From Saprospiraceae bacterium (GTDB taxonomy: Bacteria; Bacteroidota; Bacteroidia; Chitinophagales; Saprospiraceae), in contig JAKVCV010000001.1 of assembly GCA_022448945.1 (NCBI GenBank), positions 81,670-145,669 on the forward strand: 64,000 nucleotides of DNA, written 5' to 3'. This document shows, one piece after another, positions 8,401 to 56,514 of this stretch (positions are counted from its first letter, which is position 1; each line of letters starts with the position of its first letter). The notes under the pieces were generated by a model. That model did no database searches. It saw only the letters and a program-made list of their open reading frames with translations, and had not been told where the DNA came from. Made by a program: the position numbers and the translations under genes.

Positions 8401-10201
8401 TGCTTCTTATACACTAATAGTAACGGATTCTAATGGTTGTACACTAACTTATGGCCCCGATTCTGTATCAGAACCTGAAGTCTTGCAAATTGTTGTGGAT
8501 ACTTTTAAAAATGAATCCTGTGATGGCATCACCGATGGCTTTGTCCACACCTCAGTACTTGGGGGAACTGCGCCTTTTGGTTATCTATGGAATACTTCAG
8601 CAACAACTAATGATATTAGTGGACTTATTGCAGGAACTTATACGATTACGTTAACAGATTCGAATAGCTGTATGGCTACAGACTCGATTACAATCAATGA
8701 CATTCCTACTATTGTGGTAACATTGGATGCTATAGATTCTGTTTCCTGTAATGGCCTTTCAGATGGTGCTTTAAATATAACTACTACACTCGGTGCACCG
8801 GGTTATAGTTGGTTGTGGTCTAATACTGATACTACAGAGACCCTTTCGGGTCTAAATGCTGGTTCTTATACTGTTACAGTTACTGATTCATTGGGTTGTC
8901 AGGTCATACAAGGACCATTTCTGGTGGAACAGCCAGATGTACTGGTATTAACGCTTGACAATGTTGATTCTGTTTCGTGTAACGGAGCCAATGATGGTGC
9001 TGTTGCTATCTCAACTTCAGGAGGTACTGCTACCTATTTTTATAACTGGTCGAACGGAATGACTACTGAAGACATTTCCGGTTTGAATGGCAATTCATAT
9101 GCACTAACCGTTACTGATATTAACGCATGTACCACCACTTCAGGGCCTCATATTGTTAATGAAGAAACCGCTATTGCCATTAGTCTGGATACCATCATAG
9201 ATCTATCCTGTAATGGCGCCAATGATGGTACTGTTGCTATTATTGCTTCCGGAGGTTTATCTTCATATTTGTATAATTGGGATAATAGTTCTGCTACTAC
9301 TTCAACAATTTCAGGCCTCGCAGGTAATACATATACACTTACTATCACAGATGCTGCAGGTTGTACAGCTACCTCAGGGGCTCATACCGTAACAGAACCA
9401 GCTGCTTTGTCACTGAGCATTATGCCTACGGTACCATTGCAAGGTTGCTTGGGGCAGGCTATTGGGGTGTTAGATGCTGCTGCTTTAGGCGGAACGGATA
9501 GCTTAACCTATCTCTGGTCAAATGCCGCCACTTCTGCTTCAAATACCGGACTGAATACCGGCGTGTACACAGTCACTATAACAGATGCTAATGGCTGTAC
9601 CATTACGGCACAGGATTCTATTCAGGACCCTTTGGTGCCGACTGTTTCTCCTTTCGTAGGTCAATCGCCAATTACCGATACCACCATTAACTGGAACGAT
9701 GTAATTCTTGTAGATGCCGGCAACGATCAATCTGCAAGTGGAGTGACATACCAATGGTCAGAAACTACAAGTCTGGGGGATGTTAATTTCGATGATGGAA
9801 CATCGGCTTCAACAACCGTTAATCCGCAACCTGTTAATCCGGGTACTTATGTCTTGTTGCTCACCGCTACTTCTTTAGATGGATGTATCGATACCGGCAG
9901 CGTTACAATTACAATAACGATCTCAGAGTTAATTGGTATGCCCAATGCTTTTACTCCAAATGGAGATGGAATAAACGATTATTTCAGACCTGCAGGACTG
10001 GACGATCAATTTATTCTGGAGTTTAAAATTTATAACAGATGGAGTCAACTGGTCTTTGATGGAACAGATACAAGCATTAATTGGGATGGAAACTATCAGG
10101 GTGTAGACCAACCTTCAGAGGTTTATATCTATATTTTACGTTATAAAATACCTAGTCAGGAAGAAAAGATCATGAAAGGTGAAATGACCCTGATGAGGTA
10201 G
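5408..10201 (+). CDS. SprB-repeat surface protein with T9SS type B (gliding-motility-associated) sorting domain
   Basis: 1597 aa, complete. Residues 1-23 are a signal peptide ending A-H-A before Gln24, which supports the ATG start. About 18 SprB-type repeats of roughly 80 residues follow (consensus L-D-S-I-x-x-V-x-C-N-G-x-x-x-G ... W-S-N-G-x-T-T-E-D-I-x-G-L ... T-V-T-D-x-N-G-C). Then comes a PKD-like segment (about 1430-1505) and from residue 1511 a type B sorting domain beginning M-P-N-A-F-T-P-N-G-D-G-I-N-D. The product should cross the outer membrane through T9SS and sit on the cell surface. Some repeats are nearly identical at DNA level (67 bp exact at 7670-7736 and 7901-7967), a sign of recent duplication or gene conversion. 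It probably shares a transcript with the paralogue upstream. Confidence 0.95.
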   Translation: MKFCVQLILVLGLLISFSFRAHAQPILTIDTIIDATCNLSADGAINISVAGNPNFTYAWSNGATTEDVSGLFAGSYVVTVTDGLNGVTVSSVLTVGAPPVLIVNTDTIIHVSCAGDANGAVYVSVGGGVPNYTYIWDNGATTEDVTGLTEGPVNLTVTDANGCTSSSKSIFLDSIAPLTLTVDTISNISCNGANDGYINITVIGGVGNFSYLWNSGQTTDDISALGASLYTVTATDSNGCSISSGPHTITEPGLLSISLDTIIHLLCNGENSGQVLIATNGGTIPYSFSWSNGATTEDITGLLGDTYFVTVTDSIGCQATSGPHVVNEPSTILVFVDSIIHQLCSSVPSGAVDLSVSGGTPGYTYLWGNGETTQDVSGLYSGVNDVTVTDNNGCTASAKSIFLDSIAPIVITLDSIIDVSCNGANDGGVFVSVSGGRGPAYFYNWSNGATTQNITGLAGNSYTVTVTDSNSCVMVSGPHLVAEPLSMVLAFDSIQHVDCNGNANGAVFVTTTGGITSYSYNWSNGFTTEDITGLSGGSYDITVTDNNGCTVSAGPFVVNEPAVLQLTLDSIQHVDCNGNANGAILITVSGGTTNYTYNWSNGFTTQNIFGLNGGSYIVTVTDANGCAVTDTAYVVNEPTAISIVLDSILDVSCNSFGDGAVFVSSSGGTTNYTFNWSNGFTTEDVTGLSGGSFTLTLTDANGCTHTSGPHIVIEPAGMTITLDTISHVSCNAASDGLISLATSGGAPAYIFDWSNGMTTEDITGLNGGNYMLTVTDVNGCTVSTGPFVVNEPAVLQLTLDSIQHVDCNGNANGAVLITTLGGTTNYNYNWSNGMTTEDITGLNGGNYMLTVTDANGCTVTDTAFVLNEPTVLAIVLDSIGHLSCNNDSTGAVFITTSGGTTNYSYYWSNGMTTEDVSGLLGGNYTITVTDANGCTDIIGPNIVFEPSALNVVSDSIINVDCNGNANGAVYVSVSGGLTSYSFIWSNGFTTEDITGLSGASYTLIVTDSNGCTLTYGPDSVSEPEVLQIVVDTFKNESCDGITDGFVHTSVLGGTAPFGYLWNTSATTNDISGLIAGTYTITLTDSNSCMATDSITINDIPTIVVTLDAIDSVSCNGLSDGALNITTTLGAPGYSWLWSNTDTTETLSGLNAGSYTVTVTDSLGCQVIQGPFLVEQPDVLVLTLDNVDSVSCNGANDGAVAISTSGGTATYFYNWSNGMTTEDISGLNGNSYALTVTDINACTTTSGPHIVNEETAIAISLDTIIDLSCNGANDGTVAIIASGGLSSYLYNWDNSSATTSTISGLAGNTYTLTITDAAGCTATSGAHTVTEPAALSLSIMPTVPLQGCLGQAIGVLDAAALGGTDSLTYLWSNAATSASNTGLNTGVYTVTITDANGCTITAQDSIQDPLVPTVSPFVGQSPITDTTINWNDVILVDAGNDQSASGVTYQWSETTSLGDVNFDDGTSASTTVNPQPVNPGTYVLLLTATSLDGCIDTGSVTITITISELIGMPNAFTPNGDGINDYFRPAGLDDQFILEFKIYNRWSQLVFDGTDTSINWDGNYQGVDQPSEVYIYILRYKIPSQEEKIMKGEMTLMR
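7670..7736 (+). repeat. 67-bp exact direct repeat, copy 1 (SprB coding repeat)
   Basis: This 67-bp stretch is identical to 7901-7967. The offset of 231 bp is 77 codons, so the reading frame is kept. The neighbouring repeats in this gene match only at protein level. Confidence 0.9.
7901..7967 (+). repeat. 67-bp exact direct repeat, copy 2 (SprB coding repeat)
   Basis: Second copy of the 67-bp repeat at 7670-7736, in the same frame, encoding the W-S-N-G-M-T-T-E-D to T-V-T-D part of the next SprB repeat. Confidence 0.9.
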
Positions 10202-15352: not shown

Positions 15353-18300
15353 TTATTTTTCAATATTCTTAACAACTTCAACCCATTGACCTTTTTTACG
15401 GGCCTGAATAGTCTTATCATACATTGCTTCCACAGATATTGCTGGAAGATAGTATCGTCCCAGATAGCTGGCATTCAGTAATACATTAAAAGTTTTACTT
15501 TTTCCTTTTTTCAGATCGAAGAAAGTATATACCCGATCGTCTCTGATATCTAGATATTCAGCTTTATCACCACCTGCAGTTGCACCTGTCATTCGAGTAT
15601 TATGTATTTCCCATCCTGGAGCAAAGACCTGGTGGATTGCCAATTCGTGATAGTTATGGGAGCCTGTATTTTTAACAGTTACCTTGACTTTGAAATCACT
15701 CCCTTGTAACATTAATTTAGGGTCTACGCTATTTCCAGTCATATCGACATATTCTACTTTTAATTCCAGTCCTTCAGCAGTTTCTGTTTCGTTCATTGTT
15801 GCAGGAATGCCATCCGAAATCAAACGAGCAAAAATCATATTGCCACTCGTGTTTTTGAATTCTACAGCTGATGCCTGTTCGCCGTCAAGTTCCAATTGCC
15901 AGATCGGCTTGTTGCTCTTTACTTTATTCCAGTTACCATTAGCTAAACGGTATTCAAATTCAACATTTCTACTTACACCACCTTCTCCCACAAACTTTGC
16001 CATTGCAACAAGTGCATGTGCTGTTTCTTGCGTGCTTAACCATTTTTCGTCCGATAATCTTTGTGAAATTTGTTTAACAATATCATTAGCATTATTACGT
16101 AGGTTCATTATACTTAAAGCTTGTAGTATCAATGCCTGATCTCGGAATTTTGATCCGAAAGTAGAAGCACCATTACTACCCAAATATGGTACTGCTTCGA
16201 AAACTGCATCAGCTACAATTTTTTTGGCAACAGATTTTTGACCTGCTATGTGATAAGCAGCAGCTAGGTGCCAACGTGCAGCAACTGCATCTTTGTGTCC
16301 TTGTTTGAGCCGCATTCTGTTCATAGACCCAAGGTCAGGTTTGCCTGCAAGTGCTAATAGGTATAATCGGTATGCCTGAGTCAGGTCGTCACTTACATTT
16401 CCTTTAGGTGTCCATTTTTGTGCTGTAGAAGTTTGAAAAGCAATCCATTTATTCATGAAGTTTTCGGTTACTTTATAACCTGCTTTTTTAGCTTCAATCA
16501 TAAAGTGGCCAGCATAGTTTGTTGCCCATAAGTTGTCTTCCTGTCCCGGCCAGTATGCCATTGCACCATTAGGGTTTTGATATCTGTATAAGCGTTTAAC
16601 ACCTGCTTTCAGGTTTTTATCAATCTCTAATTTTTTGGTTTCTGATAAATTCATTAAAGAAGTCAGATATACCTGTGGAAAAACAGAAGATGTTGTTTGT
16701 TCCACACAGCCATAAGGATAACGAATAAGGTATTTCAGGCGTTTCCCCAGATTCATTGGAGGAATGGAAGATACTTCCATAACACCGTTGTTCGTTCCTG
16801 TCATTCCCAGGGGTTTGTAGGTTTCTTTCCACTTATTGTTGTTTTCCAGAGCATGATGTGCAACAAGAGTTTCTCTTGGGTTGGCATTTCTTATAACAAC
16901 ATCTGTTTCGTAAATGGCAGATTCTTTGCCACTAGATACAGTTATTTTTACATGACCAGTACCTACTTTGCCAATAGTTTTTAATTCAAAATATGTAAGA
17001 TCATCACCTGGTTGTTTGAAGGTCAGTTTATTTGTTTTACTACCTATAATATTTATCATGTCGTTACTTTCAATTTTGACAGATACATTTCTAACATTTT
17101 TTTTCATAGCAAAAACAGTAACAGGTAACTTAAAGGATTCTTCAACACCCAAAACCCGAGGTAATGTACCCAATACCATAAGAGGCTGTCGTACAGGAAT
17201 TGCTTTTTCTGTAGAGCCATATGCTCCTTTGTTAGCTGCTACCACCATTGCTCTTACTGATCCTACATAATTAGGCATAGTCAAATTGTGTTTTGCCGTT
17301 TCTCCTTCTTTAAGATAGAAAGGTCCCAGGTATATTACAACAGGTTTAAAACGGTTAGGTTTTTTACGCCCTTTACCAGGTGAGGCATCATCACCACCAA
17401 TACTTAACAAGCTTTTTACATCACCACCAAAGGCACCCAATACATCATTATACATGTCCCAGGTTTTAACGCCTAATGCTTCTCTTTTATAGAAATTGTT
17501 CCATGGGGATGGTGTACGAAAATTGGTTAAATCCAGGATGCCTTCATCTACAATAGCTATTGTATAGGCCATGGGGCCACCTTTGCGTTCTTTTACTGAC
17601 ATGGAGAAGGTCTGATTTGGACGCAACTCATCAGCAATTACCATTTCAGGTTCCAGATGTGTTTGAGGGTCTTCGATTTGTAATGGTATTGCACCATACA
17701 TTCTAATAGGCAAATCGTTTTTGGTCTGTGCGTGTGGTTGTAATAATGTTACTGTAGCATAGGCATTAGGAGCCATACTTGAATTTGCTTTGAATTGGAA
17801 TTGGGTTGTTCCTTTTTCAGTTTCTACCCAATGAGATTCAAGTATATTTGTGCCATTTTCTATAGATATCAATGCGCGGCCTCCATTTCCAGAAGGAATA
17901 TTTAGCGTTACCATATCTCCAACAGAGTATTTTTTCTGGTCTGAAGTAAAATTTAAAGCAGTTGCACCTCCAGGGTCATTCTCTGTAGAACGCCCTGCCC
18001 ATCCTGGCCAGTCAATATAAAATACTTTACCAGTGCTGTGTCCTTTTTTCCCATTCGAAACACGAACTAAATAACGTCCCCAACTTGGATACTTGACTTC
18101 TAATTCCCAAACTGCTTTACCTTTTATAGTAGAAACTTTTGTAGAAGAAACTTCAGTGCCATAGACCTTTCCTCTATAGCTTGAAACCTGATCTTTGTTT
18201 TTGTCAAACCACCATTTCCACTTCAATTTATATAATTTAACTTCAAGATCTTCTATATCTACGGGTTTCCCATCTTTATCAACAGTAACAATCTCTACTT

Positions 18301-20887
18301 GATGCTTAACATCAGTAAGTAGCATGTTTCGAGCTTCATCGCCTTTTGGTAGTCTTACGCCTACATACGATTTGTATGGATGATAAGGCATAGACATTTG
18401 ACCAACACTAAAGTCTCCTCCAGGTTCAAAGACTTGCATACGGAAATTTGCTTTTAGCATACCAGGTCCTTGATTTCTGGCCGCTATATCAGCTTTTATG
18501 GTTGCTAGACCACTATTATCAAGTGTTCCATCAAATATAACTTTGTCTTCAGGATAAAATTCCCGTGCAGGGTCCTGGAAAGAAAAGTTGTTATATTTTG
18601 CAAATGTCGTTTTGCTTTCTGACAAGGTAACTTCAATTTTAGCTTTAAGATCTTTAGCAACAGCGCCATGCAACCAATTGGCTTTTAATTGCCCTTCTAC
18701 ACTTTTATTGTCAACAGAAAGCTCTTTAATGCCAAAGTTTAGATCCATTTTTAGGCGATTAGGTTTGATGGCTTCAATTTTGATGTTTTTACTAAATTTT
18801 GCTCCCCCAACCCTTACCATGGCTAGATAATTACCAGTAGGTGCATTTTCATCAGTAGAACAAGTGAAATTGTAAATTCCATTTACGCCTTTAGTAGTTG
18901 TTTTCTTTACTACTATAGAGCCTCGAGAATCTTTCAGTGTAAATACTACTGGATGGTTTTCAGGCAATGCTTTATCTTTATCCTCAAGAATAAAATTAAT
19001 AAAAAGCTCGTCTCCAGGTCTCCAAACTCCACGTTCACCATAAATATAGCCTTTCAAACCTTTGTGATAGGTGCTTCCTGCTACGTCAAAACGGCTCATA
19101 GAAAGTGCATTGCCATCGTCGAGTCTGAGATAACCTCTTTGCTCATTATGTTTGGCAATTAGAAAGAATGGTTTTTTTGTTAATTCAGGTTTTGCTTTTC
19201 CTTCTTTATCAGTTTTGGCTGTACCAATTAATTCCTGATGATAATCATAAAATTCTAAACTAACATTATTGATAGGTTCTGTAGTCTGTAAATTGTTGAT
19301 TACAAAAAGGTTTCCGTTATCACCCTGTTTAGCAATAATACCTAGATCTGAAGCCAGAATATTACGCTTGGCAACCATATTTGGACGGTAATAATATCTG
19401 CTACATGGGTTTTTTAAATCTCCGTAATCATAATCATCACCATAGTTATCCCAATAGCTGCTACTGTAATTTGGGCTATCCCAGTTTTTGGGTAATTTCA
19501 TCATGTCAATCTCTTCATAATGTGCTTCCTCTTCATCTGTTGATTGACAGGGGTAGAGTGAGTAAGACTGCCTGAAACCCAATGCAATTTCATAGATTGC
19601 TCCTGGTTCAGGAGTAATTAGTTCTGCAAGATCCAGAGAATGATTACACCATTCTGTTAAATTTAAGCCCTGCGTTTTATCTAAAGCGATTTTCTTTTCT
19701 AGTACAACCGTACCAACACGTTTTAATTCATTGTTTTCATCAATTTTGTTCACCTGAAAAAATTGTTTAATGTTCTTTTCTTTAATTTTTATAACTCGAA
19801 CATCAATAGCATTTAAATTAACTGTTTTAAAGATTACAGGCATGTTTTTTGATTTCGGGATTATATTTCCTTTGCCAATCCACTCTACTTTTGGTTTATT
19901 CTGAGAAAAAGTAATTGTTTCTGAATGAACATTTTTTAGGGATTCCCCCAGATTATTTTTGATTTCCTTCGAAACTTTTAAAATCAAATCACCCACAAAG
20001 TTTCCATCTGTAAAGAGCTTTATTTTGTTGTCCTCAATGGAATATTTTACATTTTTTCCATCCAAAGTAATAAGTCCCTTAAGCTCTTGACTAGGATCAA
20101 GTAAGTCAGAAAATTCAAGGATAATATGTTGTTCAACATCATTATTTCTATATGTTCTATTTAATTCAAACAATTCTTCTGATGGGATAATTAGTTCTTT
20201 TTCTCCCTTGTTTTTTGAATTAATATTTTCTCCATTCCATTTCCAGGTAACGTTATAAGCCTTAGCTTTTTGTTTTACTTTTTCTATTGTGAAGCGATGT
20301 TTTTTGTCCGAATTGTGTGACCAATTGATTTTGAGTTTTTTATCTCCAATAAAAGCCGTCAATAATTTTTCAATTTTTGAAAAATCTTCAATGTCGTGTG
20401 TTGTCAATTCACCAGCAAGTTGCACCCATGAATTATTGTCCTTTTTACTTATGGTACTTGCTAGAGGGCTGACATTTATAAATTGGTCTTTTGCTTTAAA
20501 TTGAAATACAAAATCAGATAGATTGGAAGGGATTTCAGGTTTTATCTTTGATAAATCTAGAGTTGCTTTATAGATTTGTCCAGATGTTAAGTCACTTGTA
20601 GGGATAAATTCAATTGTTTGTTTGTTTAGCCATACAGCTTCTCCTTCTATTTGAGGCTCAAATCTAAAAGGATTTGGGTATATGCTAGCTTTGCCCGTAG
20701 TGTTTACTTCTTCCTGAAATGATACCTGAATGGTTGATTTTTTGGAAATCTCTCCATCTGTAAAAGCTGATAAATAGTTGTCATACTTCTTGTTGTATTC
20801 CACTTTTGTAGGAACGTACTCATTAGTACATGAGCTTAAGAACATGGCTAAGAATAGAAATAGCCCACTGAATTTTGTTGTAGTCAT
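15353..20887 (-). CDS. Alpha-2-macroglobulin family lipoprotein with intact thioester motif
   Basis: 1844 aa. The N-terminus is a lipoprotein signal with L-S-S-C, lipidated Cys20. The MG-type beta domains fill the first 1300 residues. The thioester motif G-C-V-E-Q is intact with Cys at residue 1394, followed by the alpha/alpha toroid-like and C-terminal domains. Bacterial members of the family trap proteases covalently and protect the envelope. The enterobacterial partner gene pbpC is not beside it; instead a small gene of unknown function lies 28-odd bp upstream on the same strand and probably shares the transcript. The length is in the normal range for bacterial members. Whether it faces the periplasm or the surface cannot be told. 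Confidence 0.93.
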   Translation of the reverse strand: MTTTKFSGLFLFLAMFLSSCTNEYVPTKVEYNKKYDNYLSAFTDGEISKKSTIQVSFQEEVNTTGKASIYPNPFRFEPQIEGEAVWLNKQTIEFIPTSDLTSGQIYKATLDLSKIKPEIPSNLSDFVFQFKAKDQFINVSPLASTISKKDNNSWVQLAGELTTHDIEDFSKIEKLLTAFIGDKKLKINWSHNSDKKHRFTIEKVKQKAKAYNVTWKWNGENINSKNKGEKELIIPSEELFELNRTYRNNDVEQHIILEFSDLLDPSQELKGLITLDGKNVKYSIEDNKIKLFTDGNFVGDLILKVSKEIKNNLGESLKNVHSETITFSQNKPKVEWIGKGNIIPKSKNMPVIFKTVNLNAIDVRVIKIKEKNIKQFFQVNKIDENNELKRVGTVVLEKKIALDKTQGLNLTEWCNHSLDLAELITPEPGAIYEIALGFRQSYSLYPCQSTDEEEAHYEEIDMMKLPKNWDSPNYSSSYWDNYGDDYDYGDLKNPCSRYYYRPNMVAKRNILASDLGIIAKQGDNGNLFVINNLQTTEPINNVSLEFYDYHQELIGTAKTDKEGKAKPELTKKPFFLIAKHNEQRGYLRLDDGNALSMSRFDVAGSTYHKGLKGYIYGERGVWRPGDELFINFILEDKDKALPENHPVVFTLKDSRGSIVVKKTTTKGVNGIYNFTCSTDENAPTGNYLAMVRVGGAKFSKNIKIEAIKPNRLKMDLNFGIKELSVDNKSVEGQLKANWLHGAVAKDLKAKIEVTLSESKTTFAKYNNFSFQDPAREFYPEDKVIFDGTLDNSGLATIKADIAARNQGPGMLKANFRMQVFEPGGDFSVGQMSMPYHPYKSYVGVRLPKGDEARNMLLTDVKHQVEIVTVDKDGKPVDIEDLEVKLYKLKWKWWFDKNKDQVSSYRGKVYGTEVSSTKVSTIKGKAVWELEVKYPSWGRYLVRVSNGKKGHSTGKVFYIDWPGWAGRSTENDPGGATALNFTSDQKKYSVGDMVTLNIPSGNGGRALISIENGTNILESHWVETEKGTTQFQFKANSSMAPNAYATVTLLQPHAQTKNDLPIRMYGAIPLQIEDPQTHLEPEMVIADELRPNQTFSMSVKERKGGPMAYTIAIVDEGILDLTNFRTPSPWNNFYKREALGVKTWDMYNDVLGAFGGDVKSLLSIGGDDASPGKGRKKPNRFKPVVIYLGPFYLKEGETAKHNLTMPNYVGSVRAMVVAANKGAYGSTEKAIPVRQPLMVLGTLPRVLGVEESFKLPVTVFAMKKNVRNVSVKIESNDMINIIGSKTNKLTFKQPGDDLTYFELKTIGKVGTGHVKITVSSGKESAIYETDVVIRNANPRETLVAHHALENNNKWKETYKPLGMTGTNNGVMEVSSIPPMNLGKRLKYLIRYPYGCVEQTTSSVFPQVYLTSLMNLSETKKLEIDKNLKAGVKRLYRYQNPNGAMAYWPGQEDNLWATNYAGHFMIEAKKAGYKVTENFMNKWIAFQTSTAQKWTPKGNVSDDLTQAYRLYLLALAGKPDLGSMNRMRLKQGHKDAVAARWHLAAAYHIAGQKSVAKKIVADAVFEAVPYLGSNGASTFGSKFRDQALILQALSIMNLRNNANDIVKQISQRLSDEKWLSTQETAHALVAMAKFVGEGGVSRNVEFEYRLANGNWNKVKSNKPIWQLELDGEQASAVEFKNTSGNMIFARLISDGIPATMNETETAEGLELKVEYVDMTGNSVDPKLMLQGSDFKVKVTVKNTGSHNYHELAIHQVFAPGWEIHNTRMTGATAGGDKAEYLDIRDDRVYTFFDLKKGKSKTFNVLLNASYLGRYYLPAISVEAMYDKTIQARKKGQWVEVVKNIEK

Positions 20888-46279: not shown

Positions 46280-47275
46280 TTAGTGAATTAATAATTTATT
46301 TATCGAATGATTAATTCCATCTGTAATTGTCATAATATAGCAACCAGGATGCAAATCTATCGTTTCAATTTTTGTTGGTGAATCAGCCACTATTTTTATT
46401 AATGTTCCCTGCATATTGTGTATCATTAATGAATAAGATTCTAATTTAATTGCACTAATTATAATATTATTTCCTGATTTAACAGGATTTGGAAAGATTG
46501 CAATTATTGGTTCTTCAATTTGTTTTATTGAAACATCCATATTAATATGAATTACACCTACAGCATCCAAATCAAAACCACCTGATGGAAATGGTGTAGA
46601 CCAGGGATCATTGATTTTAATACCACGACTATCTAACCTTGCATAACTATCTTGTATACTTCCTACCACATCAATAATTCTCAAATGTGTAACCTTATTT
46701 AAGTCAATAACGGCTGTGTCTGCTATTAAATCATTTAAATCAAATGGTGTACCGTAATTAGCTTGATATTTACCTGCTAAATTGTGAATTTTTGTTGCAT
46801 CTACCATTCCGAAACTGCCAATTTGTAAAGAAGTATCATTATTTGATATCGCAGGAAAACGGACAAAATTTTGGCCGTCGGAACTAGCTTCAACAAATCC
46901 CAATTCTAAAAAAGTTGAATTGAATGCATTTTCAAAAACTGCAAAATCTGGTCCATTGCCATTGGTTATTGGATGTTCAAAAGTCAACGTAGCCATTCCA
47001 CCGTCACCTAAACTAATAAATCCACCTTCTCCAGCCTTTCCTGTTGCATTTTCGTTTGTGCCAGAATTGGCAATGCCTAATGAGGGTTGGCTAATATCAA
47101 CTGGACCAACATTTACTGTACAAGTTTTTGCCCATGCTAATATTATGCTGCTGTCTTTATGAATTGCTGTACTTCCTGGTTGATTTGCAGGAGGAGCAAA
47201 TTGAGCACTACTATTCATGTAGTAAAAAATAAAAATAAGATAAAACACACCTTTTGTCATAATGTAAAAAATCAT
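46280..47275 (-). CDS. Secreted cell-surface protein with T9SS type A domain
   Basis: 331 aa. A signal peptide ends near residue 24 (N-S-S-A-Q). The mature part has F-I-S-L-G-D-G-G-M-A-T-L-T-F, G-P-D-F-A-V-F-E-N-A-F and D-S-Y-A-R-L-D-S-R-G-I-K, a domain I have seen with cobalamin-uptake loci of Bacteroidota. A type A sorting domain closes the protein (I-F-P-N-P). It is predicted on the cell surface; its ligand is unknown. The heptosyltransferase gene follows 8 bp later. Confidence 0.8.
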   Translation of the reverse strand: MIFYIMTKGVFYLIFIFYYMNSSAQFAPPANQPGSTAIHKDSSIILAWAKTCTVNVGPVDISQPSLGIANSGTNENATGKAGEGGFISLGDGGMATLTFEHPITNGNGPDFAVFENAFNSTFLELGFVEASSDGQNFVRFPAISNNDTSLQIGSFGMVDATKIHNLAGKYQANYGTPFDLNDLIADTAVIDLNKVTHLRIIDVVGSIQDSYARLDSRGIKINDPWSTPFPSGGFDLDAVGVIHINMDVSIKQIEEPIIAIFPNPVKSGNNIIISAIKLESYSLMIHNMQGTLIKIVADSPTKIETIDLHPGCYIMTITDGINHSINKLLIH

Positions 47276-47748: not shown

Positions 47749-50700
47749 ATGCTAATTAAAAACATCCAACAATTCCGTACCAATTGGCGCAATGCGCAAG
47801 GATATGACATGCCTAACTGGGATGAAAATTTTATAGGGAGTGCTCATGGCGAAAACAGTGGCTTTTATAAAATGGTAAATGGTATTGTTAATAATATTAA
47901 AGCGGATTTAACACCAAAATTACAAAATGCACAAGATGAACAAGCGATTTATGAATTTCTTCAAAATGCTGCAGATAGTCAATCCACAGAATGTGCGGTG
48001 ATATATAATGATACCTTTTTTATGGTTCTGAATAATGGTCGTGCATTTTCTGAAAAAGATCTTAAAGCACTTCTTAATTCTTTTCAGGGTACTAAAGCAG
48101 ATAAAACTAAGGTAGAAAATTGTGGTAAAATTGGTCGTTATGGGATTGGGTTTAAATTGGCATACCGTTTAATGGGGAAGTCTGATGGCGCCGAAGAATT
48201 ATTGAGTGATCTTGCGGGGCCACTTTTATTTAGCTGGCACAATAATAAACAGTTTGAGGGTTTATTGAATTATAAAGGTGGTAATATGACTCTGGACAAT
48301 AAAATTTCTGGAGAAAATGCACCTTGGCTTTTAAAAATTATACTTGCGTGCTTCCCCACTTGTCCTGAGGAAAAGATCAAAAACTTGAATTATGAAGATG
48401 ATGTATTATTCAAACAGGAAGATCTAACTGAATTAGTAGGTTTTTTAAATGAATACAAACATCTTTTAGAGAATTTTTCTTTGCAACAAGGTTCACTTTT
48501 TTTCTTGCGTTTCGGCCCTAAAAAACATGAAAAATTAAAAGAATCCCTACTAAATATTAAGTCTGGGATCGGTTATGCAATGAATAATCTTAAAACCCTT
48601 GAGAAAGTTGCATTACAGGATGAAATTATCGAAAAATTTGAAACTCGTTTCGAACGGTATTCAATTTTGCCTGGAACAGATGATTTTAAAAATATTGACC
48701 CTGAATTTCCTACTTGTCCAATAGAGATATCACTTGGTTTTCCTGAAAGCCTAAATCAGATGCAAGCATTAAAAGATGCTCCTAGTTTGTACCAGTTTTT
48801 CCCAATGAGAAATGAACGTCATGGTATGGCCTATTTTATCCATAGTTCATCTTTTGCAAAAATTACAGACCGTACACGTTTGGATGACCAGGGAGAAGCA
48901 AATATTGAAACATTTAAATATATAACCAAATCTCTTAAGCGTAATCTAAATAAATATAAACAAGAAGATCTTCAGACTTATTGTCATATATATAAAGCGC
49001 TATTGTTGACAAATCGATCAATTGAATATGATGCTGAATTGATTAATAAATATCTATATGAGCCTTTATTGGAATATCTTCAAATGAATATTCCTACTAA
49101 CAAAGGAAATTTTTATCTCAAAGATTTAATAATAGCTAAAGGAACAGCACTTCCAATTGAACCTATGAGTCTTGGAATAGGAAGAGAGTGGTTATATTGG
49201 ACAGATGTTGATAAAGAAGATGATATTTTACGCTCTGCAGCTAATAATGCAAAATTAGGTTTGAAACGATGGGGGCTCAAAGAACTTGTAATGGAGGCTA
49301 ATTTAAGTCTTTTAAATAATTTTATTTCGAATCTTTCTTCTGAAGATTATGGTGTTTTTGTATCTGAATTAAAGCGAGTTGAATTTGATGATGAATTTTT
49401 GGAAAAATTTGCTGAAATAAAGTGTTTTAAATTTACCAGTACGACTGGTGAAGCTCATTTCTATGCTATTAATGATTTGCAAGCACAGGATGATATTTTT
49501 CTTATGAGCGAACGTATGCTTCCAATACGTGACTCCATTAAAGGATTAGGCTTTGCAGTTCTTGAATTTAATATTCTTGATTATTCGGTCATTTTGCAAC
49601 AAATAGAATCTCAATTAGATTATTTAACAGATGATCATGCTTTATTTGAAAAAATTGCTGGTCGTACAAAAGGTGCAAGTCTAACAGTAAAACAAAAACA
49701 TAGTTTGTATGATTTCTTAAAAGATCTTGAGGGAGTTAAAAAACATGAATTAAGGAGTGTTTCATTATTTAGCAATAAAGAAGGGCTTGCTGCACCATTG
49801 CATGGATTACTTCCAGCTGATGCTAATGTAGAGAGGTGGTTAGAGAACTTTAAAATTGCAAAAGAAGAAGATTCTGAACAATTGGCAGAGCAATATATTT
49901 CAAACAAGAATAAATGGGAGACATATAGTCATATTATTGTTCCTTTCTGGTCCGAATTGGTAAAGGGAATTGATAGTGAAAACGAAGAAGAACTGTTAGA
50001 GTTTTATCAAAGTGTATCTGCCTATTTTAAATTGAAGGCTGCCCAACCAAAATTAGAAGAAGTTAATTACATTTATACTAATACAGTAGGAGGGTTTTGT
50101 AAACCTCAGGAAGTATTTTTTCATAAATGTCTTGAAAATATCAATGTAGAATATGAAGACTTACGTTCTGCAGTTGAAAAAGTTTTGAACCTATCTTTGC
50201 CGCACCCCTCAATTCTTCCTTTACTTTCTTTAGATCCATTTAGAACATCACCAACTACGGTTAGTAAAGAATGGAAAATGGGTATTAGCGAGTTGATAGA
50301 AAATTGCAAAACGACAGAATTGGATCCTGAGGAAAAAAAGGCCTTTTTTATTTTGTTAGCTGCTGTCTTACCCCCCAAAGAACTTGCCCGCGTAGAATTG
50401 TTCTGTAATCAGAAAGGACAACGTATGGTATTGTCCAAACTAATAGCATCTACTAAATCTGTTGAAGCTTGGTTGGATGAATTTAAAATTGATGTTCATG
50501 AGGATAGTGTTACACTCCAAAATTACCTTGCTAAAGAGACTGATATTTATACTAATATTTTATCTACAGAATGGGAAATGATAAGTGGACATTCTTCAGT
50601 TAATGCTAATATTAAGGCTTTTTATCAAGGGGTAATGAAATATGCTACTTTAGCAAAATCACCTAAACCATTGATTACTAACAATTATATTTTTATTGAT

Positions 50701-53394
50701 AATTCAGTAGGTTTTGTTCCTGCTTCTAAGGTGTTTTATCATGATCAAATGCCTAACTCAAATCATTATAGTGATTTAAGAACCGCTGTACATACAATTA
50801 CTGATTTATATGCCCCCCATATTGATGTTTTGGAGTTTTTGTCTGAAAATGTATTTAAAACCCGCAATAGCATATTAGCTAAATCAATCGCTAAAGATAT
50901 TGTTATTTTGGATAAAAGTGAAGCAGCAAGTTTAGTTCATTTTTTTGACAGAACTAAAGAAGATCTTTTTACTTTTTTATATGTTGTTGAAAGTCAAGAA
51001 AATTCCAGAGAGTGTGAAGTAGGTAAAAGAGCTAGAAATATTCCTTATGTAGTAGAAAAAGGCCAACAAACACTAGCTGAAAAAATCAATGCAATTTTTG
51101 GAGAAACATATAAACTACTACCTGCTAAAATGTACGTTTCGGAATATAGGAATAAAGGTTTGTTAAGAGGCAGTCAGTTGTTTAATGCAATTTCCAAATC
51201 CAAAGAAGTATCTCCTGAATTACTTTCTGCACTAATTGTAGAAAGTGGGAATGCTGATGTGCAGGAACAGGTTTTTAGTAAAATTGACAAAATAGTTTTA
51301 AAAGAAGGGCAGACATATAATAAGGATTCATTTGAACATCAAACGCTTCAAATTTTTAGAAATAAAGATGCTGACCATTCAAAAATCCGTTCTAAAATTT
51401 ATATCGAGAATCTAAAGGGAGAATTGCATAAGCTTACTGATATAGGCTTTGATATAAATGTATCTATTTCGATTGAACGATTCGGAAAATTTAATTTAAA
51501 GCTTTCAGAAGTTTTACCCAGATTTAAGGATATTCAATTGCTTTTAACTAATATCGCCGATCAATTTATTGATTATGAAGCACCAACCTTACTACAAAAA
51601 CGTTGTTTTGAAGGAGAGGAAAAACATATAAAAGACATTTTTGATGAATTAAAACAAGATCATAGTTTATTGGAAAATTCTTATCAGTTAGCTTTTGCTT
51701 TGTTGTATGCTAAAGATGCTGATAATAGTAAACTTATTAAATCATTCTTGTTAAATACGCAATATAGTGAACCTGTAGAAATTAGTAAGTTTGATTCTTT
51801 TCATTTAAACAATAATACGTTTATTGATGCTGCTGCAATTTTAGATATGAAATTTTATGCCGGTGTCGATGAATTGTTAAAATTGAAGGATAAAAAGGGT
51901 TTCTTTAGTTTTGGTAATCAAAAATTGGTATATGAACCATTTATTGAAAAAAACACTTTCTTTTGTACCCCAGTTCGTCCCTTGAATGAAGATGAAAACC
52001 CAGATAAATTGCAATCAGAAATATTGAATTTCTTGTACGGAGTATGGTCAAATATCCCCGATTTATTACGTCCTTGCAGATTGGATCTTAAGACTGATTC
52101 AGATGGCACGCTAGCAGGTTTGATCCCCTCAAAGTTAGTTTTTCCTGAAGCCTATGCTTTAGTCAAAGAAAAATTTCCAGTTTGGCTCACAAATTGGGTA
52201 GGAACAGAGAAAGAAATAGTAGAAGAGAGGGTAGTTGAACAAGAAGTTATTAGTGAAGAGATTAATCAAGATTCAGAACATGAATTAACAGAAGAAGATA
52301 CCACACCACTTTCTAAAGTAATTCTTATACCTCGTGGCAAATTATCTTTTTTAAATGCAATAGGTGTAAATACAGAGCGCTCTACATTGGTTTCTGTTAG
52401 AAATTATTTCAATACCAATTCTGGCAATCCAGTTTCTCAAAAGCAATTGAATGATTTACGTAATCAGGAAGAAGATTATTTATTACAAACAGTTATGTGG
52501 TTACAATCTGAAGGAACAGTTTTGTCTTCGGAAGATGAAAGACTTTTTTGGCTTAGAAAGCTGTATAATACTTTACCAAAACTTACCAATAATACACCTT
52601 TGCCTTATATTATTAAAACAACGGGGACGATAGAAGAACCTACTTATGAATATATGGTAGAAAACCATGCTGATCAGGAACTATATTATTTTGATATTAA
52701 ACAGCAACGTCAATTAATAGATAAATTTCAGGTTACAATTGAAGATGTATTGGTCTGCCTTAAACACAATAACAAACGTTGTACTAATTTAGATCTAAAA
52801 GGAGTTGATTTAAAAACAACTAAAGTAGAAAACACATTGGATATTCAACGTTTAGAGGAAAATAGTATGGAGTGGGGTGCTGACCATTATATTAAATGGC
52901 GTACCGAGTCCGAATATACTATTCAATTGTTTGCTGGGAAAATACCTTATAGTGTTAGATTTTTTGATCTCGTAGTTAAGGAATATGAAATGGGTAATGC
53001 TGTTCTTTGTGATAAGATTGCATATGTTAATAGCAACTCTACTAATATTGAAGAGGATTTGTTTTCGATTACCAAATATAATGGTTTGACAGAAGCCCAC
53101 TTGCTTGGTTTGTTACGCTACAAAAATGAAAATAAAAAACAGATTGGTGGTCACAAGTTTATTGAAAGGGTAATTGAAACAGTAGTTGTAGAAGAAAAAT
53201 TAGGTGAAAATGAGGAAGCTATTGAAAACCCATCTATAGAAGATATTAAATCACATAAAGATCAAAATTCTAAAGGCAAATTAAAATTGGCTTTTGATAT
53301 AGGTGAATTACCTGCTGAAATGCTTGAAGAACTTTTACAATATGCTAAATCAGCAAAAATGATAGTTGAGAAAAAAAGTGTTGATAAGGTTTAA
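47749..53394 (+). CDS. Giant Hsp90/sacsin-type ATPase-domain protein, 1881 aa, unknown function
   Basis: The N-terminal 260 residues are a GHKL (Hsp90-like) ATP-binding domain: E-F-L-Q-N-A-A-D-S at 69-77 (the N-box, with the catalytic Glu), N-N-G-R-A-F at 95-100 and I-G-R-Y-G-I-G-F-K-L-A-Y-R-L at 128-141. This is the type found in sacsin. The middle holds two homologous modules of about 160 residues (669-832 and 881-1037). An acidic linker lies near 1500, then a 350-residue tail with no recognised family. No signal peptide, so it is cytoplasmic. It stands alone with its own promoter. Chaperone, DNA-linked or defence roles are all possible; none is shown. Confidence 0.85.
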   Translation: MLIKNIQQFRTNWRNAQGYDMPNWDENFIGSAHGENSGFYKMVNGIVNNIKADLTPKLQNAQDEQAIYEFLQNAADSQSTECAVIYNDTFFMVLNNGRAFSEKDLKALLNSFQGTKADKTKVENCGKIGRYGIGFKLAYRLMGKSDGAEELLSDLAGPLLFSWHNNKQFEGLLNYKGGNMTLDNKISGENAPWLLKIILACFPTCPEEKIKNLNYEDDVLFKQEDLTELVGFLNEYKHLLENFSLQQGSLFFLRFGPKKHEKLKESLLNIKSGIGYAMNNLKTLEKVALQDEIIEKFETRFERYSILPGTDDFKNIDPEFPTCPIEISLGFPESLNQMQALKDAPSLYQFFPMRNERHGMAYFIHSSSFAKITDRTRLDDQGEANIETFKYITKSLKRNLNKYKQEDLQTYCHIYKALLLTNRSIEYDAELINKYLYEPLLEYLQMNIPTNKGNFYLKDLIIAKGTALPIEPMSLGIGREWLYWTDVDKEDDILRSAANNAKLGLKRWGLKELVMEANLSLLNNFISNLSSEDYGVFVSELKRVEFDDEFLEKFAEIKCFKFTSTTGEAHFYAINDLQAQDDIFLMSERMLPIRDSIKGLGFAVLEFNILDYSVILQQIESQLDYLTDDHALFEKIAGRTKGASLTVKQKHSLYDFLKDLEGVKKHELRSVSLFSNKEGLAAPLHGLLPADANVERWLENFKIAKEEDSEQLAEQYISNKNKWETYSHIIVPFWSELVKGIDSENEEELLEFYQSVSAYFKLKAAQPKLEEVNYIYTNTVGGFCKPQEVFFHKCLENINVEYEDLRSAVEKVLNLSLPHPSILPLLSLDPFRTSPTTVSKEWKMGISELIENCKTTELDPEEKKAFFILLAAVLPPKELARVELFCNQKGQRMVLSKLIASTKSVEAWLDEFKIDVHEDSVTLQNYLAKETDIYTNILSTEWEMISGHSSVNANIKAFYQGVMKYATLAKSPKPLITNNYIFIDNSVGFVPASKVFYHDQMPNSNHYSDLRTAVHTITDLYAPHIDVLEFLSENVFKTRNSILAKSIAKDIVILDKSEAASLVHFFDRTKEDLFTFLYVVESQENSRECEVGKRARNIPYVVEKGQQTLAEKINAIFGETYKLLPAKMYVSEYRNKGLLRGSQLFNAISKSKEVSPELLSALIVESGNADVQEQVFSKIDKIVLKEGQTYNKDSFEHQTLQIFRNKDADHSKIRSKIYIENLKGELHKLTDIGFDINVSISIERFGKFNLKLSEVLPRFKDIQLLLTNIADQFIDYEAPTLLQKRCFEGEEKHIKDIFDELKQDHSLLENSYQLAFALLYAKDADNSKLIKSFLLNTQYSEPVEISKFDSFHLNNNTFIDAAAILDMKFYAGVDELLKLKDKKGFFSFGNQKLVYEPFIEKNTFFCTPVRPLNEDENPDKLQSEILNFLYGVWSNIPDLLRPCRLDLKTDSDGTLAGLIPSKLVFPEAYALVKEKFPVWLTNWVGTEKEIVEERVVEQEVISEEINQDSEHELTEEDTTPLSKVILIPRGKLSFLNAIGVNTERSTLVSVRNYFNTNSGNPVSQKQLNDLRNQEEDYLLQTVMWLQSEGTVLSSEDERLFWLRKLYNTLPKLTNNTPLPYIIKTTGTIEEPTYEYMVENHADQELYYFDIKQQRQLIDKFQVTIEDVLVCLKHNNKRCTNLDLKGVDLKTTKVENTLDIQRLEENSMEWGADHYIKWRTESEYTIQLFAGKIPYSVRFFDLVVKEYEMGNAVLCDKIAYVNSNSTNIEEDLFSITKYNGLTEAHLLGLLRYKNENKKQIGGHKFIERVIETVVVEEKLGENEEAIENPSIEDIKSHKDQNSKGKLKLAFDIGELPAEMLEELLQYAKSAKMIVEKKSVDKV

Positions 53395-53898: not shown

Positions 53899-56514
53899 AT
53901 GAAAGAAACACTAATTGAATTAGAAGAATCAGCCATTGTTGATGAAACTCCAACTAATTCTAAACCCTTGACTTCCAAAAATAAATATTCATTTGATCAG
54001 GCTCTGAAAGAATCAACAAAATATTTCTCCGGAGATGAATTGGCAGCTAATGTCTGGATCAATAAATATGCATTAAAAGATTCTGAAGGTAATATATATG
54101 AAAGTAATCCTGATCAGATGCATCGTCGGTTAGCAAAGGAAATTGCAAGAATTGAAAATAACTATACTGATCCATATACCGAAGAAGAAATATATGACCT
54201 TTTAAAGGGCTTTAAATACATTGTCCCTCAGGGTGGTCCAATGTCTGGTATAGGTAATTTTTATCAAATTGGTTCTCTTTCTAATTGCTTTGTTATTGGT
54301 AATGATGGCAATTCAGATTCGTATGGTGGTGTGATGAAAATTGATGAAGAGCAAGTACAATTAATGAAACGGAGGGGAGGCGTAGGTCATGATCTATCGC
54401 ATATAAGGCCGAAAGGTAGCCCTGTTAAGAATAGTGCATTAACTTCTACTGGTATTGTTCCCTTTATGGAAAGATATTCTAATTCTACAAGGGAAGTAGC
54501 ACAGGATGGTAGAAGAGGAGCATTGATGTTGTCAGTGTCTATTAAACATCCGGATGTAGAACAGTTTATTGATGCAAAAATGGATGGCACCAAAGTTACG
54601 GGAGCAAATGTTTCGGTTAGAATTGGTAACGACTTTATGGAAGCTGTTAAATCAGATCTTGAATATGAACAACAATATCCGGTCGATTCGGAAAATCCTA
54701 AATATACAAGTCAGGTTAATGCCAAAAATTTGTGGGAAAAAATTATACATAATGCTTGGAAATCAGCAGAACCTGGTATTCTGTTTTGGGATACTATAAT
54801 TAATGAATCAGTTCCTGATTGTTATGCTGATTTAGGTTTTAAAACTGTTTCTACAAATCCTTGTGGAGAAATACCACTTTGCCCTTATGATAGTTGTAGA
54901 TTATTAGCGATTAATTTATATAGTTATGTAGATAACCCATTTACAGACGAGGCAAAATTCAACTACGATAAGTTCAATAATCATGTTGGAATGGCCCAAC
55001 GTATTATGGATGATATTGTTGATTTGGAGATGGAGAAGGTTAACAGAATTATTGAAAAAATTGAATCAGATCCTGAAAGTCTTGAAGTAAAAAGAACAGA
55101 ACTGAATCTTTGGGAAAAAATTAAAACTAAAGCACTACAAGGTAGAAGAACAGGCGTAGGTATTACCGCAGAAGGAGATATGTTGGCTGCTTTAGGTTAT
55201 CAATACGGGACTCCAGAAGCGACCGAGTTTTCTACTGAAATACATAAAACACTAGCTCTTGCTGCATATCGTTCTTCTGTCAACCTAGCTAAAGAAAGAG
55301 GTGCTTTCTCTATTTATGATTATAAAAGAGAATTAAATAATCCTATGATTCTTAGAATCAAAGATGCTGATATTGACTTATATAACGATATGGTTAAATA
55401 TGGTAGAAGAAATATAGCATTATTAACAATAGCACCTACAGGGACAACTAGTTTAATGACTCAGACTTCTTCAGGAGTAGAGCCTGTTTTTATGGTGTCT
55501 TATAAAAGAAGACGTAAAGTAAATCCTAATGATCAAAGCGTGAAAGTTGCATTTGTTGATGAAGTTGGAGATTCTTGGGAAGAATATAATGTCTTTCATC
55601 ATAAATTTGTCAATTGGTTAGAAATTAATGGTTTTGACAAAGATGAAGTATCAAAAATGGATCAAGAATCATTAAATAACATTATTGCAAAATCTCCATA
55701 CTATAAAGCAACTGCTAATGATGTAGATTGGGTTGAAAAAGTTAGATTGCAGGGGGCTGTTCAAAAATGGGTTGATCATTCAATTAGTGTTACAGTAAAT
55801 GTACCAAATGATTGCTCAGAGGAGATGGTTAGTAAGATTTATATGGCTGGATGGGAAAGTGGATGTAAAGGAATTACAGTTTACAGGGATGGTTCCAGGT
55901 CTGGTGTTTTAATTTCTAATGATTCAGAAGAGGATGAAAAAAATGAGATCATTACTAAATTTCTAGAAACGCAGGCGCCTAAACGCCCTGAGAAATTAGA
56001 AGCAGAAGTAATTAAGTTTAATAATGAACTTGAAAAATGGATTGCAGTTATTGGTTTATTGGATGGAAGACCTTATGAGATCTTTACTGGAGGTGCTGAA
56101 GAATCTTTTTCTATTTTATCGTACGTAGACAAAGGTTGGGTGATTAAAAGTAAGTCTTCTGATGGTAAATCTAGGTATGACTTTCAATATGAAGATAGTC
56201 ATGGTTATAAAACAACTATAGAAGGATTATCTAGAACCTTTAATCAAGAATATTGGAATTATGCCAAACTTATTTCTGGTGTATTACGTCATGGCATGCC
56301 AATTAGTTTTGTTGTTAATATGGTCGAGAATTTACATCTTAATGATGAAACATTAAATACATGGAAAAAAGGTGTCGTACGTGCCCTAAAGAAATTTATT
56401 CCTAATGGAACTGCGCCTAGATCGAATGAGTGCCCAAGTTGTAATGAACCTTCCCTGATATATGAAGAGGGATGTTTAATATGTAAAAGTTGTGGTCATT
56501 CTAAATGTGGATAA
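53899..56514 (+). CDS. nrdJ: Adenosylcobalamin-dependent class II ribonucleotide reductase
   Basis: 871 aa. The active-site Cys set is visible: Cys130 in L-S-N-C-F-V, the radical Cys322 in N-P-C-G-E, and Cys333 in S-C-R-L-L-A-I-N-L. The loop around residue 150, M-K-R-R-G-G-V-G-H-D, and P-T-G-T-T-S-L near 514 are typical. The end C-P-S-C and C-L-I-C-K-S-C-G-H is a Cys-rich tail of NrdJ enzymes. It makes deoxyribonucleotides with a B12 radical and needs no oxygen, so the cell needs adenosylcobalamin. No partner small subunit is present, as expected. The upstream region has DnaA boxes. Confidence 0.95.
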   Translation: MKETLIELEESAIVDETPTNSKPLTSKNKYSFDQALKESTKYFSGDELAANVWINKYALKDSEGNIYESNPDQMHRRLAKEIARIENNYTDPYTEEEIYDLLKGFKYIVPQGGPMSGIGNFYQIGSLSNCFVIGNDGNSDSYGGVMKIDEEQVQLMKRRGGVGHDLSHIRPKGSPVKNSALTSTGIVPFMERYSNSTREVAQDGRRGALMLSVSIKHPDVEQFIDAKMDGTKVTGANVSVRIGNDFMEAVKSDLEYEQQYPVDSENPKYTSQVNAKNLWEKIIHNAWKSAEPGILFWDTIINESVPDCYADLGFKTVSTNPCGEIPLCPYDSCRLLAINLYSYVDNPFTDEAKFNYDKFNNHVGMAQRIMDDIVDLEMEKVNRIIEKIESDPESLEVKRTELNLWEKIKTKALQGRRTGVGITAEGDMLAALGYQYGTPEATEFSTEIHKTLALAAYRSSVNLAKERGAFSIYDYKRELNNPMILRIKDADIDLYNDMVKYGRRNIALLTIAPTGTTSLMTQTSSGVEPVFMVSYKRRRKVNPNDQSVKVAFVDEVGDSWEEYNVFHHKFVNWLEINGFDKDEVSKMDQESLNNIIAKSPYYKATANDVDWVEKVRLQGAVQKWVDHSISVTVNVPNDCSEEMVSKIYMAGWESGCKGITVYRDGSRSGVLISNDSEEDEKNEIITKFLETQAPKRPEKLEAEVIKFNNELEKWIAVIGLLDGRPYEIFTGGAEESFSILSYVDKGWVIKSKSSDGKSRYDFQYEDSHGYKTTIEGLSRTFNQEYWNYAKLISGVLRHGMPISFVVNMVENLHLNDETLNTWKKGVVRALKKFIPNGTAPRSNECPSCNEPSLIYEEGCLICKSCGHSKCG

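What the first reader, a model, noticed from the sequence alone, without database searches (positions are those of the whole stretch)
47749..53394. Stand-alone 1881-aa sacsin-like ATPase with a duplicated internal module
Seen: a GHKL ATPase domain with all motifs intact, then two copies of a roughly 160-residue module (residues 669-832 and 881-1037, DNA offset 636 bp). Shared landmarks are an L-F-x-N-x-x-G start, a V-E-x-W-L-x-x-F-K-I segment, N-Y-I-Y/N-Y-I-F and a D-L-R-x-A-V helix. Known: sacsin combines Hsp90-like ATPase domains with internal repeats, and giant GHKL ATPases occur in several bacterial defence systems. Inference: this could be a bacterial sacsin-type chaperone or an unclassified defence gene. 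It has no operon partner here.
Basis: partly seen in the sequence, partly recalled or inferred. Interest (0 to 1): 0.75.

Follow-up and report, generated by a model that had tools for sequence, protein, structure and literature searches.

The report
Effector-free core relative of Tiamat ATPase
A giant bacterial ATPase whose relatives look like virus-defence proteins was found in every sampled species of its genus and lacks the catalytic end-piece that many relatives carry, so it may be a defence-type protein that became an ordinary cell component.

Summary
The 1881-aa gene is real and so is its internal tandem repeat (residues about 636-848 and 849-1055; shuffle z = 35, profile E = 5e-44). It is not unclassified: it matches a PADLOC TmtA (Tiamat anti-phage) model with E = 0 and passes NCBI's sacsin-type ATPase cut-off. 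Two things are unusual. (1) Relatives look like a modular chassis: GHKL ATPase, middle region, 0, 1 or 2 repeat modules, then different C-terminal domains (NOV_C, DarT, SF1 helicase) or a ZorA-ZorB operon, often among defence genes. The window protein and the other two-module proteins (15 of 15) lack NOV_C. (2) In its genus (Aureispira-type, Bacteroidota) it is in 9 of 9 genomes, near the same upstream gene in 6 of 8 relatives, has the RpoB tree topology and low dN/dS (about 0.04), whereas 19 of 199 genomes of the family match the TmtA model, weak matches included. Best reading: an ATP-driven chaperone/clamp of a defence-type family, without a built-in effector, fixed as a core gene; phage defence through a partner in trans is nearly as likely. 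New variant of a known kind.

The parts
47749..53394 (+). tmtA-like gene, 1881 aa giant GHKL ATPase
   Evidence: PADLOC TmtA PDLC03970 E=0, 1169 bits
47749..48228 (+). residues 1-160: GHKL (Hsp90/sacsin-type) ATPase core
   Evidence: NF047352 residues 65-137, HATPase_c_3 64-144, sacsin chains by profile, E 5.5e-6
47953..47967 (+). motif I, E69-x-x-x-N73
   Evidence: conserved in 26 of 26 aligned rows, window included
48031..48039 (+). motif II as N95-N96-G97 (Asn in place of the canonical Asp)
   Evidence: 26 of 26 aligned rows
48133..48156 (+). glycine-rich motif G129-K136
   Evidence: alignment rows
48229..49653 (+). residues 161-635: middle/transducer-like region
   Evidence: AlphaFold2 model of 1-1060, mean pLDDT 86; Foldseek best hits Hsp90, TRAP1, MORC; 'mid' profile found in relatives
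49654..50292 (+). module copy 1, residues 636-848
50293..50913 (+). module copy 2, residues 849-1055
50914..52248 (+). residues 1056-1500: shared C-terminal chassis (c1, c2)
   Evidence: profile-profile match to the ZorAB-linked ATPases, probability 99.8, E 5.8e-30; c1 and c2 also found in L097
52249..52338 (+). residues 1501-1530: variable acidic linker
   Evidence: 17% invariant in 7 genus members; pLDDT under 50 at model residues 460-481, i.e. 1499-1520
52339..53037 (+). residues 1531-1763: last shared chassis region (c3)
53038..53391 (+). residues 1764-1881: conserved tail; in the corresponding stretch relatives go on to a NOV_C domain, absent here
46280..47275 (-). divergent upstream neighbour with type IX secretion sorting domain; homologue within 2 kb of the gene in 6 of 8 genus relatives

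Best explanation
A giant GHKL ATPase of the bacterial TmtA/sacsin-like family that lacks a recognised C-terminal catalytic effector and has become a core gene of its genus. Inferred mechanism: ATP binding closes an Hsp90/MORC-type N-terminal dimer; the middle region and the two copies of the mainly helical module form a cavity that holds a client (protein or nucleic-acid complex); hydrolysis releases it. In defence-type relatives the same clamp carries a C-terminal domain (NOV_C, nuclease-like; DarT; helicase) or is encoded with a ZorAB motor, and client recognition would switch that effector on. Here no effector is seen, so client handling itself, or a partner bound by the conserved C-terminal tail, is the output. 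Shown: domain order, module duplication, absence of NOV_C, presence in 9 of 9 genus genomes, tree agreement with RpoB, low dN/dS, defence-type context of relatives. Inferred: ATP cycle, client, and descent from a defence protein.
For: Family. Chassis collinear with the ZorAB-linked ATPases to about residue 1762. A NOV_C HMM built from the six ZorAB-linked ATPases (which match by construction) also finds the domain in L049, and finds none in the 15 two-module proteins, window included, at E <= 0.01. DarT at the C-terminus of L097 and SF1 helicase at that of L095 and L098. Own genome has no PF13020 (NOV_C) match, while 3 of 9 genus genomes hold four such loci, on related ATPases. Core: 9 of 9 genomes; 6 of 8 relatives keep the same upstream gene within 2 kb; TmtA and RpoB-fragment trees of the nine genomes have the same unrooted topology, and dN/dS of G004/G008 is 0.038 against 0.031 for RpoB and 0.147 for a flanking glycosyltransferase (ratios). 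Patchy outside: 19 of 199 family genomes with the TmtA model, 9 of 298 order and 10 of 395 phylum genomes with a two-module profile. Genus neighbourhoods poor in defence models, relatives' rich.
Against: A core gene can still be an immune gene. Motif II has Asn for Asp in all 26 rows, so ATP use is not certain. Two NOV_C-less members of the two-module clade sit beside defence-like genes: L065 next to a type III-like DNA methylase and a ResIII-domain protein, L094 two genes upstream of a weak caspase-model hit. So lack of NOV_C does not by itself mean loss of defence. G007's copy (59% identity) is at a different site, with close co-directional neighbours. The glycosyltransferase tree differs from TmtA and RpoB in one split (G000 with G005, support 0.988), and for TmtA only two of six genome pairs gave a usable dS. 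Only an RpoB fragment and one glycosyltransferase were used as comparison genes. G002 and G003 are nearly identical, so nine genomes are about eight lineages. Direction of change (effector lost here, or gained elsewhere) was not rooted.
Confidence: 0.42

Rival explanations
1. An active Tiamat-type anti-phage sensor that the whole genus keeps; it acts with a partner in trans through its conserved tail, or by itself as a clamp on phage protein or DNA.
For: PADLOC TmtA E=0; relatives' neighbourhoods hold BREX, type I restriction, Qat and ZorAB models and a type III-like methylase; a tail conserved in the genus; Tiamat reported as almost always chromosomal in Actinobacteria (PMC10482375, passages).
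Against: In 9 of 9 genus genomes, mostly syntenic and slowly evolving; few defence-model neighbours: one SMC-like ATPase in G006 and untraced Csa3 and mad2 hits; no NOV_C where the TmtA model has one.
Confidence: 0.35
2. A general protein-folding chaperone (sacsin- or Hsp90-like) with no defence history in this lineage.
For: Sacsin-type ATPase, Hsp90 as best structural hits, core status and slow evolution.
Against: Patchy in the family; defence-type context and effector fusions of relatives; no J or HEPN domain match.
Confidence: 0.15
3. A factor of the predatory lifestyle of filamentous Saprospiraceae (Aureispira, perhaps Saprospira).
For: In 9 of 9 genomes of the Aureispira-type genus (predation by Aureispira is recalled) and in two genomes of genus g57 (other g57 genomes without a match may be among those not listed), whose contig size and G+C near 45% resemble Saprospira (46.6% G+C for strain WH, predatory; PMC10508125, whole text). 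That g57 is Saprospira is a guess.
Against: Two-module genes also occur in MAGs labelled Cytophagia and Bacteroidetes (L065, L068), not known to me as predators; no neighbour that I recognised as a predation gene.
Confidence: 0.06

Closest known systems
Tiamat (TmtA), PADLOC model PDLC03970
   Same: Single gene, GHKL ATPase, matches profile 1 to about 1430-1472 in the genus
   Different: Module doubled (profile positions about 627-818 match twice), NOV_C end of the model missing, core rather than accessory in its genus
Sacsin (SRR/SIRPT) and plant NO VEIN-type proteins
   Same: Sacsin-type ATPase; NOV_C domain in relatives
   Different: One ATPase unit only; the repeated module is not the ATPase; no Ubl, J or HEPN match
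Hsp90 / TRAP1 / MORC GHKL ATPases
   Same: Foldseek hits to Hsp90 chains at E 3.7e-7
   Different: Low global TM-scores (0.19/0.30); extra modules, and a C-terminal half without a PDB match at E <= 0.001
VcSduA (GHKL plus PD-(D/E)xK nuclease Shedu; PMC12137116, passages)
   Same: GHKL domain hypothesised by its authors to control a C-terminal nuclease; same logic as the NOV_C-bearing relatives
   Different: Different nuclease domain (DUF4263); no nuclease recognised in the window protein
Zorya (ZorA, ZorB)
   Same: Six distant relatives lie directly downstream of zorA- and zorB-like genes
   Different: No ZorA/ZorB-like frame in the window or at seven other genus loci; described Zorya partners are ZorC, ZorD, ZorE or ZorF and ZorG (PMC8565338, passages)

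Membership tests
Tiamat (TmtA) | Match to the PADLOC TmtA profile | tested here: met
   PDLC03970 E=0, 1169 bits
Tiamat (TmtA) | Stand-alone single gene | tested here: met
   No co-directional neighbour shared by more than two of nine genus loci; gaps 473 and 504 nt
Tiamat (TmtA) | C-terminal NOV_C-like end present in this profile (about 1466-1531) | tested here: not met
   Core-gene matches in the genus end at profile 1430-1472, except G005 (1516, read through two stops); NOV_C HMM finds nothing in 15 of 15 two-module proteins
Tiamat (TmtA) | Accessory gene in defence islands | tested here: not met
   9 of 9 in genus, mostly syntenic, few defence-model neighbours; met by several distant relatives
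Tiamat (TmtA) | Protects against phage | not testable with these tools
   No experiment; original Tiamat paper not held
Sacsin | Sacsin N-terminal ATPase-like domain | tested here: met
   NF047352 53.4 bits, cut-off 50
Sacsin | Pfam SACS domain above curated cut-off | tested here: not met
   27.5 bits, cut-off 32.8
Sacsin | Three large repeats each holding an ATPase | tested here: not met
   One ATPase; the only repeat is the 636-1055 module pair; sacsin layout from PMC3629688 passages
Sacsin | J domain and HEPN domain | tested here: not met
   Only HATPase_c_3 and SACS match Pfam up to E 1
Hsp90 (HtpG) | Hsp90 ATPase and middle fold | tested here: inconclusive
   Foldseek E 3.7e-7 but TM 0.19/0.30
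GHKL ATPase | Motif I Glu/Asn, motif II Asp-x-Gly, glycine-rich lid (recalled) | tested here: inconclusive
   Motif I and lid present; motif II Asp is Asn in 26 of 26 rows
Zorya | Adjacent zorA and zorB | tested here: not met
   No ZorA/ZorB-like frame in the window or at L041, L042, L044-L048

The most novel reading that the evidence does not exclude
Giant sacsin/TmtA-like ATPases are an exchangeable defence chassis: one GHKL clamp with a variable number of helical modules, fitted with different effectors (NOV_C, DarT, helicase) or coupled to a ZorAB motor. The Aureispira lineage has turned one effector-free, double-module version into a core cellular machine, a bacterial parallel to eukaryotic sacsin, which might then also descend from an immune ATPase.
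Probability: 0.3. Interest if true: 0.75.

Novelty: new variant of a known kind. Interest (0 to 1): 0.52.

Why it matters
Tiamat is listed among systems of unknown mechanism (PMC10482375, passages). If relatives swap effectors on one chassis, the shared part must be the sensor or clamp, which makes the mechanism testable by comparing effector-bearing and effector-free members, and one genus holds both. A core, effector-free member would be a case of an immune-type ATPase taken over for ordinary cell work, and a possible bacterial model for sacsin.

Tried and rejected
Sacsin orthology rejected (one ATPase unit, no HEPN/J/Ubl match). Further internal repeats rejected (nine sub-regions, 36 pairs). 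Mobile-element carriage: no match in 72,556 plasmid or 50,697 phage records by tblastn at E 1e-5. Operon partner shared in the genus rejected. Fold of the C-terminal half: model of 1040-1881 (mean pLDDT 81) had no PDB match at E <= 0.001. Promoter and terminator scan at chance level. The mad3 hit in G006 falls on one SMC-like ATPase that hits 15 PADLOC families, so I did not count it as a MADS system. Csa3 (4 members) and mad2 (2 members, best 3e-21) hits among 100 genus neighbour ORFs were not traced to their ORFs. A phylum search with the ZorAB-linked ATPases as query (16 of 395 genomes) gave loci that I did not test for ZorAB, apart from the G572, G496 and G237 loci already held as L097-L099, which have none.

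Rows dropped: L043 (near-identical to L042) was left out of alignment A1 and of the PADLOC neighbour scan; 100 of 115 genus neighbour ORFs and 158 of 176 neighbour ORFs of other relatives were scanned, short or overlapping ORFs left out. PADLOC tallies list only 25 of 240 and 25 of 131 families. The conservation count leaves out G007 and G003. L056 is missing from the ATPase tree and the 26-row motif check because the local ATPase HMM did not hit it.

Full report
The gene. Window 47749-53394 (+) is one open frame of 1881 codons from an ATG. Pfam finds HATPase_c_3 above cut-off and the sacsin domain below cut-off; NCBIfam's sacsin N-terminal ATP-binding domain is above cut-off. PADLOC matches its TmtA model PDLC03970 with E = 0 and 1169 bits. 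That TmtA is the single protein of the Tiamat anti-phage system is recalled; the original paper is not held. A sequence search of the PDB with the single protein finds nothing up to E 1, with a family profile four sacsin chains (5v44-5v47, best E 5.5e-6; that they are the SRR1 domain is recalled). AlphaFold2 of residues 1-1060 is confident (mean pLDDT 86, pTM 0.58) and the best Foldseek matches are Hsp90, TRAP1 and MORC ATPases, with low global TM-scores. The C-terminal half (mean pLDDT 81) has no PDB match at E <= 0.001.

The repeat. The two copies align with score 230 against a shuffle maximum of 64 (z = 35), hhalign E 4.9e-44, and none of the other 35 pairs among nine sub-regions is related. 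They are 36% identical over 168 residues and share 84.5% of predicted secondary structure in register. Across relatives the module lies between the middle region and region c1: L097 passes directly from 'mid' to 'c1'; L055, L095, L096 and L101 have one copy; 15 proteins have two (window, L041-L048, L050-L052, L065, L068, L094), at the sensitivity of a local HMM. In the module tree, copies 1 and copies 2 form separate groups that mirror the species, except the L065/L068 copies, whose placement has weak support (0.33). So the doubling is old; later homogenisation or a separate event in that pair is possible.

The organism and inheritance. The gene is in 9 of 9 genomes of the genus, at 59-84% identity in the eight others. 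A gene with a type IX sorting domain lies within 2 kb upstream, divergent, in 6 of 8 relatives; in G006 the contig ends about 1.3 kb upstream, and in G007 the surroundings differ. No co-directional neighbour within five ORFs is shared by more than two of the nine loci. The TmtA tree has the same unrooted topology as an RpoB-fragment tree; the glycosyltransferase tree differs in one split. For G004/G008, dN/dS is 0.038 for TmtA, 0.031 for RpoB and 0.147 for the glycosyltransferase; for G002/G003 0.046 for TmtA and 0.105 for the glycosyltransferase; the other four pairs gave no usable dS for TmtA (ratios). Outside the genus the family is patchy: 19 of 199 genomes of the family match the TmtA model, three of them from this genus and several only in the ATPase; with a two-module profile 9 of 298 in the order and 10 of 395 in the phylum, own genome included.

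Relatives look like a modular chassis. Profile comparison aligns the window's C-terminal half with six distant ATPases to about residue 1762 (probability 99.8, E 5.8e-30). Further on, those six carry a NOV_C-like domain with an E...YD...VKT-type pattern (L056 with a variant, AKGT): Pfam PF13020 is above cut-off in L053, L056 and L101, below it in L100, and not reported in L054 and L055, where the alignment and an HMM built from all six show it (the HMM matches its own members by construction). The same HMM finds the domain in L049 and in a separate short ORF of L028, which also matches the TmtA profile at 1466-1527, so the end of PADLOC's profile appears to be this domain. It finds nothing in the 15 two-module proteins at E <= 0.01. 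That NOV_C is nuclease-like is my reading of the motif, not a tool result. L097 ends with a DarT domain, L095 and L098 with SF1 helicase domains, and L096 overlaps a separate helicase-PIN gene. The genus also holds NOV_C-bearing ATPases in 3 of 9 genomes, four loci in all; the window's own genome has no PF13020 match (three of the four also by the local HMM).

Surroundings. Of 100 neighbour ORFs at genus loci, nine PADLOC families match at E <= 1e-10, six of which fall on one SMC-like ATPase in G006. For 84 neighbour ORFs of nine distant relatives 240 families match (BREX PglZ/BrxL, type I restriction, ZorA/ZorB among the 25 listed), and for 74 ORFs of nine others 131; QatC and QatD lie beside L099. 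These are family counts, not ORF counts, and many models are redundant. L050 (genus g57) lies beside a coproporphyrinogen oxidase, an oxidoreductase and an AAA ATPase that hits AriA and GajA models.

Reading. The anatomy fits an ATP-driven clamp: Hsp90/MORC-like N-terminus, helical modules in series, a long C-terminal chassis. For a GHKL-nuclease Shedu protein, VcSduA, the authors hypothesise that the ATPase domain controls the C-terminal nuclease (PMC12137116, passages); the NOV_C, DarT and helicase fusions here would follow the same logic. No effector is recognised in the window clade. With core status, largely shared site and slow evolution this points to a role in the cell's own life, but defence by a partner in trans, perhaps through the conserved tail (70% invariant over 1764-1830 in seven genus members), is nearly as likely. 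The Asn in place of the motif II Asp in 26 of 26 rows leaves ATP use open; the sacsin alignment shows Asn-Asn at the same place.

Literature. Tiamat is listed as of unknown mechanism and almost always chromosomal in Actinobacteria (PMC10482375, passages), is frequent in a Pseudomonas island hotspot (PMC12629846, passages), and is called on plant contigs in plant metagenomes (PMC12409356, passages), which fits cross-reaction with plant NO VEIN/sacsin-type proteins (inference). For ZorAB with a giant GHKL ATPase: searches were (no paper), in an open-access library; a term search inside three papers on ZorAB or MotAB found no Hsp90 or sacsin, and no GHKL where asked (two of three) (PMC11890865, PMC8565338, PMC12505986). 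The other papers listed and the Nature 2025 Zorya paper were not opened, so novelty of that operon is open.

Noticed in passing
L053, L054, L055, L056, L100, L101: Six Saprospiraceae loci have the gene order zorA-like, zorB-like, giant GHKL ATPase with C-terminal NOV_C-like domain, genes touching, overlapping or under 40 nt apart. It looks like a Zorya-type motor coupled to a sacsin-like ATPase; not found in the limited literature search.
   Followed up: partly
L097 6032-8512 (-): A TmtA-like protein ending in a DarT ADP-ribosyltransferase domain (PF14487, E 1.7e-20).
   Followed up: no
L095 4420-11337 (-), L098 6560-11911 (-): TmtA-like ATPases fused to SF1 helicase domains. The pooled neighbour scan that includes L098 shows BREX-type models; the ORFs were not traced.
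   Followed up: no
L049, L060, L141, L142: ATPases in open frames of 1536-1615 codons with NOV_C in genus genomes G001, G002 (two) and G003, without ZorAB-like frames nearby. In L060 it sits in a run of large ORFs.
   Followed up: partly
L046 5572-9099 (-): An 1175-aa SMC-like ATPase near the gene in G006, hitting mad3 (1.6e-54), AriA, LmuB and DndD models.
   Followed up: no
window 53899-56514 (+): A ribonucleotide reductase large subunit downstream of the gene; close relatives (79-89%) in only 3 of 9 genus genomes, the window's own included, the other six having only 24-31%-identical matches.
   Followed up: no
L052 8804-14815 (-): The G083 copy has a long Asp/Glu-rich expansion in the linker (alignment A1 columns about 1540-1660).
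   Followed up: no
window 178-5349, 5408-10201, 15353-20887: Three more very long ORFs (1723, 1597, 1844 aa) in the window, not examined.
   Followed up: no
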